The translations under genes were made by a program, and so were the position numbers. 12,466 bases of DNA from Peptococcaceae bacterium UBA4997. Lineage in GTDB: Bacteria; Bacillota; Dehalobacteriia; UBA4068; UBA4997. Positions 5,670 through 12,231 of the stretch are shown in pieces. How positions within the stretch are numbered: position 1 is the stretch's first letter; each line of letters starts with the position of its first letter. The stretch covers positions 1-12,466 of the forward strand of contig DGYV01000015.1 in assembly GCA_002398485.1 (NCBI GenBank). Reading direction: 5' to 3'. The notes beneath the pieces are model-generated. The model was given only the letters and a program-made list of their open reading frames with translations, made no database searches and was not told the DNA's origin.

Positions 5670-5736
5670 AATAAACGGAAAAACTTTAAATAAATATATA
5701 TTTGCAATTTTAATTATCTTGAAAGGAGTGGCTGTG

Positions 5737-6978
5737 ATGTCGAATTTAAAAAAAGTTAAAGTTGGTATTGGGTTTGCTACGGGGAGAAAAAATTTCCAAA
5801 AGGTTTTAAGAACCCAAATTTATAATTGGGAAGAGTCGGGTTTGGTAGATAATAATAATATTACCTTAAACCTGTTTGTGGCGTATGATCTTAGTTATAA
5901 TAAAACCAGATCCAAAGATTATACAAATATTCATCCTGAATTAGTGGATCTTATTGATGAAAGAGTATTTATCGGAGCAGAAAAGATACATGAAGAAATT
6001 GATTTCCTCATAAGGGACAAGGTTGTTTCATTAGAAGAGGCTGCCATTATTTTTGGTAAGGGGTATGCTGCCCAGCGTAATGCTATATTATATTTTGCCA
6101 TAAAGCATAATGTGGATTATCTTATTTTTCTAGATGATGATGAATACCCGTTAGCTGTTACCCATACACGTAAAACTGCGGTTTGGGGAGGGCAGCATGT
6201 TTTGGCATCACATCTTCAATTTATTAGTCAAGCCGATATTACGCATGGCCATCATTGTGGATATATATCACCTATTCCATATGTCGAATTTAATGATGTG
6301 ATGTCGGAAGATGATTTCCGTATTTTTATTGAGGCCATTAGTAATGATATTATTACATGGGATAAAATAAAAGAGGTTATGGAGCACGGCGGAGTTACAT
6401 ATGCAGATACATCTATTCTAATTAACGATAAGGCAGTTGAGGTGGATGAAGTAAATCATGCCAAATTTATATCCGGTGCAAACCTGTGTATAAATCTTAC
6501 TGATCCATCACGGGTATATCCCTTTTATAACCCGCCTAAGGCACGGGGGGAGGATACCTTTTTAAGTACTTGCCTAACTGATAGAAAAGTGTTGCGGGTT
6601 CCTTGTTATGCCTTCCATGATGGATTTTCAACATATAATCATCTTCTTGAAGGTGTTTTGCCAATACATTTAAATTTTGTTAAGGCGGATAATCAAAAAA
6701 TAATAAATCGGTTTTGCAAAGCTTGTGTTGGCTGGATTCGGTATAAACCATTATTGTTATATATAACCCAGCCGGATGATTACGATTTGAAAATTGCTAA
6801 GATGAAAGAGCAGCTTCAAATGACAGTGCCTAAAATATGCGAGTTTTTTGGGTGTCAAGATTTTCAAAAACTTAATAAAGAATTGGAAAAGTATCATAAA
6901 AATGTTGAAAAACACTATCAGGAGTTTCTTGAAACAAAACGGGTTTGGGCTAAAATAATGGAATACTTCGCCAAATAA
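5737..6978 (+). CDS. GT-A-fold glycosyltransferase-like protein
   Basis: ATG 5737 is chosen because AAAGGAG (5722-5728) lies eight bases upstream; GTG 5734 and TTG 5719 are in frame but worse placed. The product has 413 residues. The N-terminal VKVGIGFATGRKN strand and YLIFLDDDEYP (D133-D135) resemble the nucleotide-binding fold and metal-binding DxD motif of GT-A transferases. A later SGANLCINL stretch (246-254) and RGEDTFLS (270-277) resemble the acceptor/catalytic ED region. H294 in AFHDGFS could be the third metal ligand. The C-terminal 100 residues are helical and charged. No signal peptide or membrane segment is seen, so it is probably cytoplasmic. Donor and acceptor are unknown. No other glycan gene is nearby, and expression probably depends on the leader attenuator. 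Confidence 0.6.
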   Translation: MSNLKKVKVGIGFATGRKNFQKVLRTQIYNWEESGLVDNNNITLNLFVAYDLSYNKTRSKDYTNIHPELVDLIDERVFIGAEKIHEEIDFLIRDKVVSLEEAAIIFGKGYAAQRNAILYFAIKHNVDYLIFLDDDEYPLAVTHTRKTAVWGGQHVLASHLQFISQADITHGHHCGYISPIPYVEFNDVMSEDDFRIFIEAISNDIITWDKIKEVMEHGGVTYADTSILINDKAVEVDEVNHAKFISGANLCINLTDPSRVYPFYNPPKARGEDTFLSTCLTDRKVLRVPCYAFHDGFSTYNHLLEGVLPIHLNFVKADNQKIINRFCKACVGWIRYKPLLLYITQPDDYDLKIAKMKEQLQMTVPKICEFFGCQDFQKLNKELEKYHKNVEKHYQEFLETKRVWAKIMEYFAK

Positions 6979-7180: not shown

Positions 7181-7312
7181 CTAAGAGATAGTTTAGGATT
7201 TTAATACCTCTTAAAAACAATTCTATAATACTTGAATAAGTCTTGTTCTGGTCTGTTTTTTAATTTGAAATTTTTTACTAATAAAGACACGCTTTATATT
7301 AAATTAATTTTT

Positions 7313-7450
7313 TCATTTATCTTCTGCGCTAACTATTATACTGTCTTTAAGCTCTTCTTTATCAAATTTTGGTGTTTGTGCATCTACAAGGTGTTCCATG
7401 TGTTCAACTTTTTTCTTTTGTTTATTGGCAAGTTCATATTGCGTATCCAT
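7313..7450 (-). CDS. Small charged protein, tandem paralogue A (45 aa)
   Basis: Reading leftward from ATG at 7450, the ORF ends with TGA at 7313-7315. Its ribosome binding site is AAAAGGAGGTG, seven bases from the start, identical to that of the second copy at 7890. The first 38 residues, beginning MDTQYELANKQKKK and continuing VEHMEHLVDAQTPKFD, are identical to paralogue B. The C-terminus then diverges to VSAEDK, so this copy is 16 residues shorter. It is hydrophilic, rich in Lys, Glu and Asp, without membrane segment or cysteine. I do not recognise the family. Near-identical coding and upstream sequence shows a recent duplication. The 3' end may have been replaced or truncated at the duplication edge. 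Confidence 0.7.
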   Translation of the reverse strand: MDTQYELANKQKKKVEHMEHLVDAQTPKFDKEELKDSIIVSAEDK

Positions 7451-7498
7451 AATTTCACCTCCTTTTAAGAACAGTATGTGCGGCTTGCTCAACTTTTA
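7332..7498. repeat. Direct duplication, copy 1
   Basis: About 167 bp matches 7772-7938 at an offset of exactly 440 bp with roughly seven substitutions and no indel. It covers most of the small gene, its ribosome binding site and about 50 bp upstream. Similarity stops sharply at both ends. Confidence 0.9.
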
Positions 7499-7632
7499 AT
7501 CTATAAGCAAAATAGTTGAAAATACTATAAACAATGCAATTAAAATTATTATTTGGTTTGCGGATGATAAAGTAGTAATTATGTCATAATAAAAGCCGGT
7601 TTTTAAAAACATTTAAGTATTTTACCAATAAA

Positions 7633-7669
7633 AAGCAAGGCTAAAGGTATTCTAGCTAAAGCCTTGCTT
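7633..7669. terminator. Bidirectional terminator
   Basis: AAGCAAGGCT (7633-7642) pairs with AGCCTTGCTT (7660-7669). On the plus strand CATTTTTTATT follows; on the minus strand TTTTTATTGG follows. It ends paralogue B about 35 bases after its stop. Confidence 0.8.
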
Positions 7670-7704
7670 CATTTTTTATTAGGTTATCTGCTTCAAAAAA
7701 CTTT

Positions 7705-7890
7705 TTATTCAGTAAATGCTTGTCTCCATTTATTAGCTTCATCAGCTTTATCAGATTGGTCCATTTTATCTACCATTATACTGTCTTTAAGCTCTTCTTT
7801 ATCAAATTTTGGTGTTTGTGCATCTACAAGGTGTTCCATGTGTTCAACCTTTTTCTTTTGTTTATTGGCAAGTTCATATTGTGTATCCAT
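7705..7890 (-). CDS. Small charged protein, tandem paralogue B (61 aa)
   Basis: ATG at 7890 follows the strong site AAAAGGAGGTG (7896-7906) by the usual spacing. The 61-residue protein is highly charged: its N-terminal 38 residues match paralogue A, then come MVDKMDQSDKADEANKW and a short tail. It is probably cytoplasmic, with no signal peptide or cysteine. The A..A..W ending faintly recalls small clostridial proteins of the DUF3787 type, but I would not assign it. It has its own terminator at 7633-7669 and lies divergent to the B12-regulated gene. A copy of its start region lies 440 bp downstream as paralogue A. Confidence 0.8.
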   Translation of the reverse strand: MDTQYELANKQKKKVEHMEHLVDAQTPKFDKEELKDSIMVDKMDQSDKADEANKWRQAFTE

Positions 7891-7938
7891 TATTTCACCT
7901 CCTTTTAAGAACAGTATGTGCGGCTTACTTAACTTTAA
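7772..7938. repeat. Direct duplication, copy 2
   Basis: Partner of 7332-7498. The coding part of this copy continues into a longer C-terminus, so it may be the ancestral copy. Confidence 0.9.
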
Positions 7939-8029
7939 ACCATGGGGCTTTATCTGCCATATTCAATAAAAAATTGTTTTATAAACTAAAAAATAATCCA
8001 TCCATTAGCACGCAGAAGTAGATATTGTA

Positions 8030-8215: not shown

Positions 8216-8244
8216 TGTACAAGTGCTTTTTAAAATGGTATAAT
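8216..8244 (+). promoter_or_regulatory. Promoter of the B12-riboswitch transcript
   Basis: TGTACA (8216-8221, 4/6 to consensus), a 17-base spacer and a perfect TATAAT (8239-8244). The start of transcription would be near 8251, about 30 nt before the riboswitch. Confidence 0.65.
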
Positions 8245-8279
8245 TAACCTGCTATAAAAAACTTAATATTCTTATATAC

Positions 8280-8438
8280 ATATACGGTCAAAGCAAACAC
8301 TTTGATAATAGGGAAGGGGGTGTAATTCCCCCACAGCTGCCTTTACTGTAATTGGCGACTTGAAAACACTAGGCCACTGTGTAAATGGGAAGGCGTTTTC
8401 AAAAGGATGAACCATAAGTCAGGAGACCTGCCGTATAT
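8280..8438 (+). promoter_or_regulatory. Cobalamin (B12) riboswitch
   Basis: The closing stem P1 is ATATACGG (8280-8287) with CCGTATAT (8431-8438). Inside are the conserved core blocks AATAGGGAAGGGGGTGTAAT, the ACTGTAA block near 8345, GCCACTGTG near 8373, GGGAAGGCG near 8387, and the B12 box AAGTCAGGAGACCTGCC (8416-8432). It binds adenosyl- or methyl-cobalamin and represses the downstream gene when B12 is plentiful. It precedes an exported protein with a transcobalamin-like domain order, which fits B12 acquisition. Confidence 0.95.
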
Positions 8439-8443
8439 TCAGC

Positions 8444-8468
8444 AATATTCTTGGGTAAGGGGAATATT
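8444..8468 (+). promoter_or_regulatory. Hairpin in the riboswitch expression platform
   Basis: AATATTC (8444-8450) pairs with GAATATT (8462-8468), just after the aptamer and before the terminator. Its role is not shown. Confidence 0.45.
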
Positions 8469-8493
8469 AGTGTGCAACAGTGTTTTTTTGCGG

Positions 8494-8533
8494 CCTTTTC
8501 CCAATACAGGGAAAAGGTTCTTTATTTGTTTTA
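8494..8533 (+). terminator. Riboswitch-controlled terminator
   Basis: CCTTTTCCC (8494-8502) pairs perfectly with GGGAAAAGG (8509-8517) around AATACA, followed by TTCTTTATTTGTTTT. It lies between the aptamer and the ATG, as expected for transcriptional control. The T-run is interrupted. Confidence 0.75.
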
Positions 8534-8593
8534 CGCTTAAAGGGGGGAATGGAACAGTTTAACTGTTTGAAAACAAAACAAGTATAAATTTTT

Positions 8594-8599
8594 AGGAGG
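8594..8599 (+). promoter_or_regulatory. Ribosome binding site of the surface protein gene
   Basis: AGGAGG lies six bases before ATG 8606. Confidence 0.85.
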
Positions 8600-8605
8600 T
8601 TTAAA

Positions 8606-10660
8606 ATGAAGAGAGGGAATTGGAAAAACTCAAAACTAATGCCGCTTTTAGTGCTTATTTGCCTTTTAATAAGCATTTGCGCCTTTAGCAGTACTGCTTT
8701 GGCACTTCCCGTTGAGGAAGTGGCATTGAATGATGTAGTGAATTATTATGAAAACCACAATGATCGTGAATTGGCAGATTGGGGGGAATGGCTGGGTGTT
8801 GCTAGCTGCACTAATGATTTGGGCAGTTTTGTGCCCACCGCCACCAATACTGATTCGGAAGTTGGCAAAATTATTGCCAAACTGATACGCGGCAAGGATG
8901 TAACGGCAGAAGCCACTGCTGTAGCCGCAAAAATAGATGATGGAACTTATACCACACCCAATGATTTGCCTTGGGCCATTATAGCGGTAGATGCCGCTAA
9001 CCGCAGTCAGGAAACTCCCGTAGCAAGCTATGATAAAGCAGTGACTTTAGCCAAATTTGCTACCTGGCAAAAGGCGGATGGTGGTTTTGATTTTAACACT
9101 AATACCACAGGTACAGGTGATGTAGATGTTACCGCTGTTGTAGCCATAGCCTTGGCGCCTTATAAGGATGATGTAAATTACCAAGGCGTTGTAAACAATA
9201 TAAAAACCTTTTTGGCAGCTTCCCAAAATGCGGATGGCGGTTATTCCAGTGCGGATATGGAATGGGCGGGTGATATATACCCCGGTTCACCCAATGCCAA
9301 TACTACAGCTATGGCTATTTGCGCTTTGGAAGCCTTGGGTGAAGATAGCCTTACCTGGCATGGTACCGCAAGTACAACCAGCCCTGTTACGGCTCTGTTG
9401 AACTACCAACTGCCCGATGGTGGTTTCAAATTTGTAAGCACGGATACTGTTTCTAATACTTTTGCTACCAAACAGGCGGCTTTAGCTTTGGGGGATGCGG
9501 TAAACAGCCGTTCCTTCCTAAACACATTGCAAAAAAACACCATAGAATACTTTACCGTAACCCTTAATATAGATAACGGCACCCCTCAACCATTGTTGGT
9601 AAAACGCAGTGTGCCTAAGAATACCACTTTAGCAGCGGCGGCAAATGCGGCTTGGAGTGCTTCCGGTTTAGCAGGCAGCTTTGAGCCAGCCAGCAAAGAA
9701 TATTATTTGAATAATACTTTGGCTTCAGGTACTACAGAAATTACAGCTGATAGCAGTGTACTGATAATTCCCGATTTAACTGTTGAAGCAGGCAAAAAAG
9801 ATTATATAGGCTATTTCGATAAAAGCACCGCAACCATAAATGTTGGCGGTACTTTTACCCTGAACTTAAAAGGTAAAACCGCTATAGATGCAGTAAGCGG
9901 TGATAATATAGCATATTCCTACATTACTGTAAACGGTGTTGCTGGCTTTGATTATACAAATGGGGATGGCAATGTTAGCCTAACCTTCCTTAATGCAGGC
10001 ACTTATATTATAAGTGCAGGTAATCCTAAGGCAAGTGCCTATGGTGCTGATTCAGGTGATAAAATATCCCGCCCTTATTGCAAAGTAGTAGTAAATCCTG
10101 TATCTGCCCATTCTGCTAAAGTAAGTGTACGTGTGGAAGGTAAAACAGCTAATCTTGTTTATGAACCAACACTTACTGTAAATAGTGACGGTACTAAAGC
10201 TATTACAGCATTGGATGCTTTAAAGGCGGCAACTACAGATATTGATTTTTCGGGCGGTCAGCTTAATCGTGTTAAAACCGATTCAGCGGTATGGGAACCT
10301 AATGGTTATTCCTATAGCATTTTTTATAACGGTGTTTTAGCTCCGGTAGGTTTATCTGACTTAGCAATGCATAATGGTGATGAGCTTTTAATATTCTTTT
10401 GTGTTTCTAATAATGACTGGACACCTATCACCAAACATGTTTCAAACCTTACCGCAGTAAAACAGGATGACGGCAGTTATAAGCTTACCTTTACTAATAA
10501 CTATACACCTTGGGGTGCACCCGAGCCTATTGTATCGCCCATAACAGGCGCTACCGTAACTTGGGGTTATGATAGCACTACAAATACTTATACCACAGAT
10601 GAAAACGGGCAAGTGTTGATTCCTGCTATTCAGGCGGCGGCAGGCACAGCCTGCAAATAG
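8606..10660 (+). CDS. B12-regulated surface protein, N-terminal part (alpha/alpha barrel + DUF4430-like), frameshifted
   Basis: 684 codons are open before a TAG at 10658-10660. Residues 1-33 form a signal peptide (ALA before LPVEE). Residues about 115-305 contain three prenyltransferase/terpene-cyclase-type repeats marked by QKADGGF (155), QNADGGY (207) and QLPDGGF (268), the alpha/alpha-barrel type also found in intrinsic factor. Residues about 314-390 are a beta-rich segment, and about 391-497 an Ig-like segment. Residues 501-601 form a DUF4430-like domain (NGYSYSIFYNGVLAP, GDELLIFF). From 621 an Ig/carboxypeptidase-regulatory-like domain begins and is cut by the frameshift. The downstream ORF in the -1 frame completes it and adds a second DUF4430 and three SLH domains. 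Inferred role: cobalamin capture at the cell surface. It is the first gene after the B12 riboswitch. Confidence 0.85.
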   Translation: MKRGNWKNSKLMPLLVLICLLISICAFSSTALALPVEEVALNDVVNYYENHNDRELADWGEWLGVASCTNDLGSFVPTATNTDSEVGKIIAKLIRGKDVTAEATAVAAKIDDGTYTTPNDLPWAIIAVDAANRSQETPVASYDKAVTLAKFATWQKADGGFDFNTNTTGTGDVDVTAVVAIALAPYKDDVNYQGVVNNIKTFLAASQNADGGYSSADMEWAGDIYPGSPNANTTAMAICALEALGEDSLTWHGTASTTSPVTALLNYQLPDGGFKFVSTDTVSNTFATKQAALALGDAVNSRSFLNTLQKNTIEYFTVTLNIDNGTPQPLLVKRSVPKNTTLAAAANAAWSASGLAGSFEPASKEYYLNNTLASGTTEITADSSVLIIPDLTVEAGKKDYIGYFDKSTATINVGGTFTLNLKGKTAIDAVSGDNIAYSYITVNGVAGFDYTNGDGNVSLTFLNAGTYIISAGNPKASAYGADSGDKISRPYCKVVVNPVSAHSAKVSVRVEGKTANLVYEPTLTVNSDGTKAITALDALKAATTDIDFSGGQLNRVKTDSAVWEPNGYSYSIFYNGVLAPVGLSDLAMHNGDELLIFFCVSNNDWTPITKHVSNLTAVKQDDGSYKLTFTNNYTPWGAPEPIVSPITGATVTWGYDSTTNTYTTDENGQVLIPAIQAAAGTACK
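10640..10654 (+). other. Probable frameshift site with small hairpin
   Basis: Reading must move from frame 2 to frame 1 (a one-base loss) somewhere in 10603-10660, where both frames are open. Sense is continuous across ...AIQAAAGT and SLQIEKDDVNG. Exactly there GCAGGC-ACA-GCCTGC forms a 6-bp triloop hairpin. No X-XXY-YYZ slippery heptamer is in frame, so an indel mutation or a sequencing error is more likely than programmed frameshifting. Confidence 0.75.
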
Positions 10661-10692
10661 AAAAAGATGATGTAAATGGTGCTCCTACCGTT

Positions 10693-12231
10693 GTGCGCCT
10701 TACGCCCGATTATACTATAAATATAGCGGAAACCGTGGCAAGCGTTTTCACTACCAAAACCCTTACCGATACAACTACACCTGTGGATTTGGTAGTACCT
10801 AATGATATTACCACAGCCAATATTGTTGCAAGCGGTGCGGCAGGCGGTACGGCTACCCTTCCCGCTATAACCGTAGTGAACGAACAAAGCACAGGCAGTG
10901 CTTTAAGTATGGAAATAGCGGCAGGCACAGTAGTAACCAGCTATGATAACGGTTGGAACGGTACCATTCAAGTACCTACTGTAACTACTGCCAGTGTTAC
11001 CGGTCAAACCGTACAAAAAGCAATTTCCGTTGGTTTAGCAGGGCAAACCCTTAATTTTGATAAGCCTGTACGTTTGGTAATACCGGGCGCCGCCAACTAT
11101 AAAGTTGGTTTCTTGAAAACGGATGGCTCGCTTCAGGAAATAACAACTGTTTTGGCTAATGATAATATAAATGCCGCAACCGCCGCTCTTACAGGTGGTA
11201 TCAACGAAGCTAAAATAGCTGTGGGAGCGGATATGGTAGTATGGACAAAGCACTTTACCAGCTTTGTGGCCTATACTACGCCTACTTCGGGCGGCGGCAC
11301 TGCTCAACAGGTTTATATAAGCGTTAAAAATCCTAAAGGGCAAACCTATTTAAGCAAAAAATCCTATACCTTTGAAACAGGTATGACAGCCTTGAGTCTT
11401 TTGCAAAAAACAGATTTAGATATTGAGTTAAGCGGTAATTATGTAGTTGCCATTGAGGGTCTTGCCGAAAAAAGCGCAGGTTATCCAAACAGTGGTTGGA
11501 TGTATAAAGTAGGCAGTAAATTCCCAACTATAGCTACCTCCAGCTATAAACTGGAAGCGGGAGACTATGTACAATGGCTCTATTCTTACGATCTGGGCAA
11601 GGATTTAGGTGCCGATTATAAGGAAGAAGACCCCAAGAAACCCGAAGAAAATGCCCAAACAGGCAAAGCTTTCTTTAAGGATGTTGCCGAGAACCATTGG
11701 GCACATGATCATATTTATTATCTTGCCAATAAAGGCATCATAAAAGGTAAAACTGCAGATACTTATGCCCCCGGCAGTAATATAACACGTGCCGAATTTG
11801 TAACTGTATTGGCCAGGATGAGCGGTGCTGATCTAACAAAATATACCGCTGCTTCTTATCTTGATGTTAAAAACAATGCTTGGTATATATCAGCGGTGGC
11901 TTGGGCTACCAAAGTAGGTGTGGCAGGTGGTACGGACGGCAAATTTAACCCCAACGCCAATATCAGCCGTGAGGAAATGGCGGCCATGATAAGCCGTTAT
12001 GCAGCAAAAATTGCCAAATATACTTTGCCCGAAACCAATCCTGTCGCAAATTTTGCAGACAATACGGAAATAAGCTTTTTCGCTAAGGATGCCGTAATAG
12101 CAATGCAAAAAGCAGGTATAATAAATGGCGTGGGTGAAAACAAATTTGCTCCCAAAAACTCCGCAACTCGCGGTGAGGCCGCCAAAATGCTGGCAGTTCT
12201 TTTACGGGATATTGAAAAAGCCGCAAAATAA
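10693..12231 (+). CDS. B12-regulated surface protein, C-terminal part (DUF4430 + three SLH domains)
   Basis: The frame is open from 10603; the listed GTG at 10693 is only the first possible start and has no ribosome binding site, so this is the continuation of the 8606 gene. Restoring one base gives a single protein of about 1208 residues. In order: the end of the interrupted Ig-like domain (to about 10860), a beta domain ending in VVWTKHFTSFVAYT (about 10870-11275) that recurs in SLH proteins, a Gly-rich linker, a typical DUF4430 domain (about 11308-11626, with SGWMYKVGSKFP and GDYVQWLY), and three SLH domains (about 11668-11835, 11848-12000, 12040-12210). The SLH motifs are ITRAE, ISREE and ATRGE. 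SLH domains bind pyruvylated cell-wall polymer, so the protein is wall-anchored by its C-terminus. Two terminators follow. Confidence 0.85.
   Translation: MRLTPDYTINIAETVASVFTTKTLTDTTTPVDLVVPNDITTANIVASGAAGGTATLPAITVVNEQSTGSALSMEIAAGTVVTSYDNGWNGTIQVPTVTTASVTGQTVQKAISVGLAGQTLNFDKPVRLVIPGAANYKVGFLKTDGSLQEITTVLANDNINAATAALTGGINEAKIAVGADMVVWTKHFTSFVAYTTPTSGGGTAQQVYISVKNPKGQTYLSKKSYTFETGMTALSLLQKTDLDIELSGNYVVAIEGLAEKSAGYPNSGWMYKVGSKFPTIATSSYKLEAGDYVQWLYSYDLGKDLGADYKEEDPKKPEENAQTGKAFFKDVAENHWAHDHIYYLANKGIIKGKTADTYAPGSNITRAEFVTVLARMSGADLTKYTAASYLDVKNNAWYISAVAWATKVGVAGGTDGKFNPNANISREEMAAMISRYAAKIAKYTLPETNPVANFADNTEISFFAKDAVIAMQKAGIINGVGENKFAPKNSATRGEAAKMLAVLLRDIEKAAK

What the first reader, a model, noticed from the sequence alone, without database searches (positions are those of the whole stretch)
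8280..12231. Riboswitch-controlled bacterial analogue of intrinsic factor/transcobalamin, anchored by SLH domains
A complete B12 riboswitch controls a single exported protein. Its alpha/alpha-barrel-type repeats (Q..DGG at residues 155, 207, 268) and two DUF4430 domains repeat the domain logic of animal B12 carriers, in which an alpha/alpha barrel plus a DUF4430-like beta domain clamp cobalamin. The C-terminal SLH triplet would hold it on the wall. No B12 transporter gene is adjacent, so it may deliver B12 to a transporter encoded elsewhere. Regulation and domains are seen directly; cobalamin binding is inference.
Basis: partly seen in the sequence, partly recalled or inferred. Interest (0 to 1): 0.72.

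Follow-up and report, generated by a model that had tools for sequence, protein, structure and literature searches.

The report
Bacterial cousin of vitamin B12 carriers
A B12-sensing RNA switch precedes a wall-anchored bacterial protein built from the same two kinds of domain as the animal B12 carriers, and the same genome carries a B12-type importer behind a second switch of the same kind, so this is most likely part of a predicted but untested bacterial B12 capture system.

Summary
A full cobalamin riboswitch (8268-8449) precedes an exported protein with an alpha/alpha toroid, one clear and one divergent DUF4430-like domain, and three SLH repeats. In this assembly a frame break near 10650 splits the gene; a near-identical database protein, which lacks the toroid part, is continuous there.

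About 5 kb past the window a second cobalamin riboswitch leads a DUF4430 lipoprotein and an ECF importer whose S component is closest to CbrT, the proven B12 S component. A third riboswitch precedes a stand-alone toroid protein. In relatives (Paenibacillus, Clostridia) these parts often share one riboswitch-led operon. A relative's toroid-DUF4430 pair, folded with high confidence, has animal B12 carriers as its 14 best Foldseek matches, though not in the closed clamp pose.

Best reading: surface corrinoid capture feeding ECF-CbrT. B12 binding is untested. The core idea was published in 2007; added here are the riboswitches, the CbrT match, SLH anchoring and the structural match. New member of a known, untested kind.

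The parts
8216..8244 (+). promoter-like hexamers (TGTACA-17-TATAAT, TG before the second)
   Evidence: consensus match only, about as many expected by chance
8268..8449 (+). cobalamin riboswitch aptamer RF00174
   Evidence: 107.7 bits, whole model; also (one of 7 in the genome)
8492..8519 (+). terminator-like hairpin with T-rich tail; possible expression platform (OFF with cobalamin)
   Evidence: mechanism inferred
8594..8599 (+). AGGAGG ribosome-binding site
   Evidence: read from sequence
8606..10660 (+). ORF1: signal peptide (read from sequence), toroid, beta domains; ends at the frame break
8843..9514 (+). alpha/alpha toroid, ORF1 residues 80-303
   Evidence: (pLDDT 60-97, mostly over 70)
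10115..10417 (+). divergent DUF4430-like domain, ORF1 residues about 504-604
   Evidence: E 7e-7 and 1e-4 to DUF4430-bearing stretches of a relative; searches do not see it
10645..10660 (+). frame break between ORF1 and ORF2
   Evidence: a copy continuous here exists (P0001)
10657..12231 (+). ORF2 frame: beta domains, DUF4430, SLH triplet
11380..11586 (+). DUF4430 domain (PF14478)
11674..12183 (+). three SLH repeats (11674-11799, 11857-11982, 12079-12183)

Best explanation
It is the wall-anchored capture component of a corrinoid (vitamin B12 family) uptake system. When intracellular cobalamin is low, the riboswitch lets the gene be transcribed. The protein is exported and held on the wall by its SLH triplet. 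Its toroid and DUF4430 domains bind corrinoids and hand them to membrane-side parts encoded elsewhere in the same riboswitch regulon: a DUF4430 lipoprotein, a secreted stand-alone toroid protein and an ECF importer with a CbrT-like S component. Shown by computation: riboswitches, domains, operon conservation in relatives, CbrT match, fold match. Inferred: corrinoid binding, a toroid/DUF4430 sandwich (within one chain or between chains), the relay order, and repression by cobalamin.
For: Riboswitch 107.7 bits. Three of the 7 cobalamin riboswitches in the genome sit before parts of this system: the window's gene; a DUF4430 lipoprotein-EcfT-EcfA-EcfS operon at contig positions 17315-21561; and a 384-aa toroid protein on contig C29, about 400 nt after its riboswitch. 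The other four precede cbiM/cbiQ/cbiO, cbiL/cbiD, a BtuC-like ABC operon and a DASS-type symporter. The EcfS profile's best solved match is 6FNP (ECF-CbrT, a proven B12 importer), E 2e-15, next 0.08. In 80 named loci anchored on EcfS, 58 of 80 have a DUF4430 gene within 2 kb upstream of the ECF genes and 59 of 80 a toroid within 8 kb. For 42 of 61 riboswitches there, the next gene carries toroid, DUF4430 or SLH, against 148 of 1144 genes overall. Toroid-DUF4430 pair of a relative: pLDDT 90.7, pTM 0.81; top 14 Foldseek rows all animal B12 carriers. A CsaB-family gene, tied to SLH anchoring, is present.
Confidence: 0.72

Rival explanations
1. The toroid/DUF4430 proteins bind something other than B12, such as cobinamide or other corrinoid precursors, cobalt or heme, or are surface scaffolds; the riboswitch only marks them as part of a wider low-B12 response.
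For: This genome has corrin-synthesis genes, so it may want precursors or cobalt. Cobalamin riboswitches also precede a cobalt-type importer and a symporter here. A solved R. gnavus protein that matches the beta domain of the modelled relative is titled 'putative metal binding' (3u7z).
Against: The S component's only strong solved match is CbrT, which moves cobalamin and cobinamide (PMC5997447, passages). The domain pair matches B12 carriers first.
Confidence: 0.17
2. The toroid is an enzyme of the squalene/terpene cyclase or prenyltransferase type displayed on the wall.
For: Sequence and fold of the toroid alone are closest to squalene-hopene and related cyclases, with RabGGTase beta also matched.
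Against: An alpha/alpha toroid is also the animal carriers' N-terminal domain (PMC1796856 passage); in the family the toroid is joined to DUF4430, SLH and ECF genes. In the alignment the cyclase stretch DVDD faces DvDi in the profile (importance of that motif recalled).
Confidence: 0.05
3. The window's copy is a decaying pseudogene with no present function.
For: Frame break near 10650; the one near-identical protein found, P0001, also lacks the toroid part.
Against: Both halves remain open on either side of the break, the riboswitch is intact, and P0001 is continuous there; a draft assembly of 72 contigs makes a sequencing or assembly error plausible.
Confidence: 0.06

Closest known systems
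Bacterial transcobalamin-like SLBB proteins with alpha/alpha toroids (Burroughs, Balaji, Iyer, Aravind 2007, PMC1796856; passages read)
   Same: Toroid plus SLBB domain, mostly with signal peptides, several wall-anchored; often a second paralogous SLBB protein; CbiO/CbiQ-like genes in the operon; B12 scavenging predicted.
   Different: The words riboswitch, SLH and S-layer do not occur in the text held (counts). Here the parts are spread over three cobalamin riboswitches, the S component is identified as CbrT-like, and the genome has corrin-synthesis genes, whereas they say such genomes usually lack key ones.
Animal B12 carriers: intrinsic factor, transcobalamin, haptocorrin
   Same: Toroid followed by a DUF4430-type beta domain; top Foldseek matches of a bacterial relative's pair. 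PMC4350170 (one passage read) places DUF4430 in the C-terminal region of TCN proteins.
   Different: Bacterial proteins are often larger, many with several toroids or DUF4430s and SLH repeats; the window's protein has extra domains between toroid and the clear DUF4430; no PF01122 match; clamp pose not seen.
ECF-CbrT of Lactobacillus delbrueckii (PMC5997447, passages read)
   Same: Its S component is the only strong solved match of the neighbouring S component; same kind of importer.
   Different: Here an own EcfT and a double ATPase in one chain, an accompanying DUF4430 lipoprotein, and a longer S component; no surface partner is mentioned in the passages read.
BtuG/BtuH surface B12 binders of gut Bacteroides (PMC6143338, PMC8941943; search listings and abstract starts only)
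   Same: Surface proteins that capture B12 for a transporter.
   Different: Belong to Bacteroides; BtuG is a beta-propeller (passage in PMC6977713). May work alike; relation not tested.

Membership tests
Cobalamin riboswitch (RF00174) | aptamer sequence and structure above curated threshold | tested here: met
   107.7 bits against gathering 31.5, whole model
Cobalamin riboswitch (RF00174) | expression platform that ends transcription or blocks translation | tested here: inconclusive
   one terminator-like hairpin 8492-8519; 0.7 expected in shuffles
Cobalamin riboswitch (RF00174) | binds cobalamin and changes expression | not testable with these tools
   needs in-line probing or a reporter
Bacterial toroid+SLBB (transcobalamin-like clade) | alpha/alpha toroid | tested here: met
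Bacterial toroid+SLBB (transcobalamin-like clade) | SLBB/DUF4430 domain in the same protein | tested here: met
   PF14478 E 2e-11 in ORF2, which lies past the frame break; the divergent domain in ORF1 is on the toroid's side of it. The continuous copy P0001 lacks the toroid
Bacterial toroid+SLBB (transcobalamin-like clade) | neighbouring CbiQ/CbiO-like genes and a second SLBB protein | tested here: met
   same contig, about 5 kb on, behind a second cobalamin riboswitch; not the same operon
Bacterial toroid+SLBB (transcobalamin-like clade) | host lacks key B12 biosynthesis genes (described as usual, not strict) | tested here: not met
   cbiL, cbiD, cbiK, cbiM present; completeness of the pathway not tested
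Animal B12 carriers (PF01122 + DUF4430) | PF01122 toroid match | tested here: not met
   no PF01122 match in ORF1 at E<=1; the genome's stand-alone toroid has a sub-threshold match, E 0.084
Animal B12 carriers (PF01122 + DUF4430) | toroid and beta domain close over cobalamin | tested here: inconclusive
   relative's model matches the carriers over both domains in Foldseek, whole-chain rmsd about 22 A; window's own pair not modelled with confidence
Animal B12 carriers (PF01122 + DUF4430) | binds cobalamin | not testable with these tools
   needs protein
ECF-CbrT type B12 importer (the neighbouring operon) | S component of the CbrT family | tested here: met
   profile of 19 S components, 6FNP E 2.2e-15, next 0.082
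SLH wall-anchored proteins | three SLH repeats and a CsaB pyruvyl transferase in the genome | tested here: met
Squalene/terpene cyclases | catalytic activity | not testable with these tools
   fold shared, function not shown

The most novel reading that the evidence does not exclude
The riboswitch regulon encodes a split, modular ancestor-type transcobalamin: toroid and DUF4430 halves, fused in animals, work in these bacteria both as fused wall proteins and as separate chains (a stand-alone toroid and a DUF4430 lipoprotein) that sandwich corrinoids between them and pass them along a wall-to-membrane relay into ECF-CbrT. The animal carriers would be a soluble offshoot of this system.
Probability: 0.3. 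Interest if true: 0.82.

Novelty: new member of a known kind. Interest (0 to 1): 0.56.

Why it matters
How Gram-positive bacteria without an outer-membrane receptor capture B12 at the surface is little known (my judgement), and the toroid+DUF4430 family (692 proteins at E<=1e-10 to one pair region, 120 listed) carries, where the listed ones have names, names such as SLH, DUF4430 or prenyltransferase-like. The cobalamin riboswitches give substrate evidence that the 2007 domain-based prediction does not mention, and short intact members (about 700 aa: toroid, DUF4430, SLH) make the idea testable with one purified protein. If true, it also gives a bacterial counterpart to the origin of intrinsic factor and transcobalamin.

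Tried and rejected
Searching the PDB by sequence for B12 carriers with the toroid and DUF4430 profiles found none; in the VIA list for the window's ORF1 no B12 carrier is among the 50 rows shown, nor among the 50 Foldseek rows shown, so the toroid alone is not diagnostic.

The idea that the stretch right after the window's toroid (residues about 316-395) is a hidden DUF4430 found no support (0 phmmer hits; hhalign E 0.63). The divergent domain 504-604 is kept only as DUF4430-like.

The search for homologous proteins with ORF1 gave 2 hits only; the family was reached through EcfS loci and a relative's pair instead. An ordinary-SLH explanation was checked: the genome's 19 SLH matches lie in 8 open frames, and by comparing coordinates only the window's one follows a cobalamin riboswitch directly. 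Methionine synthase as a B12 user: PF02965 not found, in a genome 81% complete.

Ten paper searches in the CC-licensed PMC library: in the listings I noticed no paper that ties a cobalamin riboswitch to DUF4430/toroid/SLH proteins; 6 papers hold 'DUF4430'. I saw listings and, for five papers (PMC1796856, PMC5997447, PMC4350170, PMC6977713, PMC2667541), passages; no full text. Rodionov 2009 is not held and nothing of it was read. From recall only: that group may have named extra components (CbrX, CbrY or similar) of predicted cobalamin ECF systems, so riboswitch or lipoprotein remarks may already be in print.

Counting limits: one search kept the best 80 of 246 relatives. One search used 61 of the 66 hits (the five weakest, in L092, L101, L107, L108 and L154, left out); one search used 47 of the 54 hits (the 7 in the window's own genome left out). 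The 40 stretches were chosen for their DUF4430 matches. Binomial p values treat genomes as independent, which they are not. Gene calls and profiles are homemade. Alignment rows: 35 of 39 toroid stretches in A3, 36 of 106 DUF4430 stretches in A4, 18 of the 80 loci in A5.
Full report
WHAT IS IN THE WINDOW. A complete cobalamin riboswitch lies at 8268-8449 (RF00174, 107.7 bits, E 1e-26), with a promoter-like site before it and a terminator-like hairpin at 8492-8519 after it, then AGGAGG and an ATG at 8606. The gene is in two frames: ORF1 8606-10660 (684 aa; signal peptide by eye) and the frame 10657-12231 (524 aa, here ORF2; the ORF listing starts it at 10693). The frame break is near 10650. A database protein, P0001 (903 aa, named as from a Clostridia MAG), is continuous over the break. 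Over ORF1 326-684 it differs at one residue plus the four residues at the break, and from there it equals the ORF2 frame to the end; its own start is different and it has no toroid. So the break is not a general property of the gene; error or recent decay cannot be told apart here.

WHAT LIES OUTSIDE THE WINDOW. The window is the start of a 36,973-base contig of a draft genome (1.71 Mb, 72 contigs, 81% complete). The genome has two DUF4430 matches, both on this contig, and seven cobalamin riboswitches. One is at contig 17315-17484. It is followed on the same strand by a 267-aa DUF4430 protein with a lipobox-like signal (my reading; 17525-18328), EcfT (CbiQ family), a double EcfA ATPase and an EcfS. 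A FeoB-like gene (my reading) lies between the two riboswitch units. A third riboswitch, on contig C29, precedes by about 400 nt a 384-aa toroid protein with a signal peptide by eye, 49% identical to the toroid protein that in Peptococcaceae UBA5757 sits directly upstream of the DUF4430 lipoprotein and ECF genes. The remaining four riboswitches precede cbiM/cbiQ/cbiO, cbiL/cbiD, a BtuC-like ABC operon with cbiK, and a DASS-type symporter. So three of seven cobalamin riboswitches serve the parts of one apparent system.

CONSERVATION. Among 61 genomes (the window's and 60 relatives) 39 have DUF4430 and 57 a cobalamin riboswitch. In 21 of 40 stretches fetched for their DUF4430 matches, a DUF4430 gene lies within 2 kb upstream of EcfT. 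A scan of named genomes with one EcfS gave 246 relatives, of which the best 80 were kept, in Paenibacillus, Cohnella, Bacillus, Clostridium, Tissierella, Ruminiclostridium, Peptococcaceae and others. In these, 58 of 80 have a DUF4430 gene within 2 kb upstream of the ECF genes and 59 of 80 a toroid within 8 kb upstream. My RNA model R1 found 66 riboswitch hits in the 80 loci; I used 61. For 42 of 61 the next gene on the strand carries toroid, DUF4430 or SLH, against 148 of 1144 genes in the same loci. For the unnamed relatives it is 25 of 47 against 85 of 467. On the other side, 29 of 80 named loci have none of the 61 hits (24 of 80 if the five weak ones are counted), and of 42 operon runs whose first gene is clear of the edge only 26 have a riboswitch within 700 nt. 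The riboswitch link is strong but not universal.

SUBSTRATE OF THE IMPORTER. A profile of 19 S components (window's genome plus 18 relatives) has 6FNP_A as its one strong match among solved structures (E 2.2e-15; next 0.082). 6FNP is ECF-CbrT of L. delbrueckii, shown to import cobalamin and cobinamide (PMC5997447, passages).

MECHANISM. Most likely (0.72): low cobalamin turns the riboswitch ON; the protein is exported and tethered by SLH (a CsaB-family gene is present); toroid and DUF4430 domains bind corrinoids at the wall; the lipoprotein and the free toroid pass them to ECF-CbrT. Shown: genes, switches, co-occurrence, folds. Inferred: binding, sandwich, relay, direction of regulation. The presence of corrin-synthesis genes and a second, BtuC/BtuF-like system leaves room for cobinamide or other corrinoids as the main ligand.

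KNOWN OR NEW. New relative to that text, by its word counts and the passages read: cobalamin riboswitches in front of the parts, SLH anchoring, CbrT-type S components, and the structural ranking. I noticed no paper joining these in the listings of ten searches of a partial library. It is not filed as an animal-type carrier: PF01122 was tested and not met.

VERDICT. Observation real with corrections; interpretation partly supported and improved by context; new member of a known, untested kind; interest 0.56.

Noticed in passing
G041 contig C1:5455521-5526268 (L072-L075): One relative has 10 of its 15 cobalamin riboswitches and all 9 of its DUF4430 matches within about 71 kb, with proteins up to about 3600 aa: a dense B12 surface-protein island.
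   Followed up: partly
L013:8897-10051 (-), contig C29: Stand-alone 384-aa toroid protein about 400 nt behind its own cobalamin riboswitch; sub-threshold PF01122 match (E 0.084).
   Followed up: yes
L011:4665-6518, contig C63: Cobalamin riboswitch about 285 nt before a DASS/CitMHS-type anion symporter, not a member of B12 regulons that I recall.
   Followed up: no
L044:668-1131 and L047:3812-4274: Two cobalamin riboswitches in tandem before a SLH-toroid-DUF4430 protein of about 2000 aa.
   Followed up: no
L092, L101, L107, L108: Very weak riboswitch model hits (about 25-27 bits) about 150-220 nt before toroid+DUF4430 genes of Clostridium-type genomes; may be divergent cobalamin riboswitches, another RNA or chance.
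   Followed up: no
window 7232-7969: Two short open frames (7232-7468 and 7720-7908) with nearly the same translation, a sign of a local duplication.
   Followed up: no
window 5719-6978: 419-aa open frame with no NCBIfam match at E<=0.01 and no Pfam match above its cut-off.
   Followed up: no
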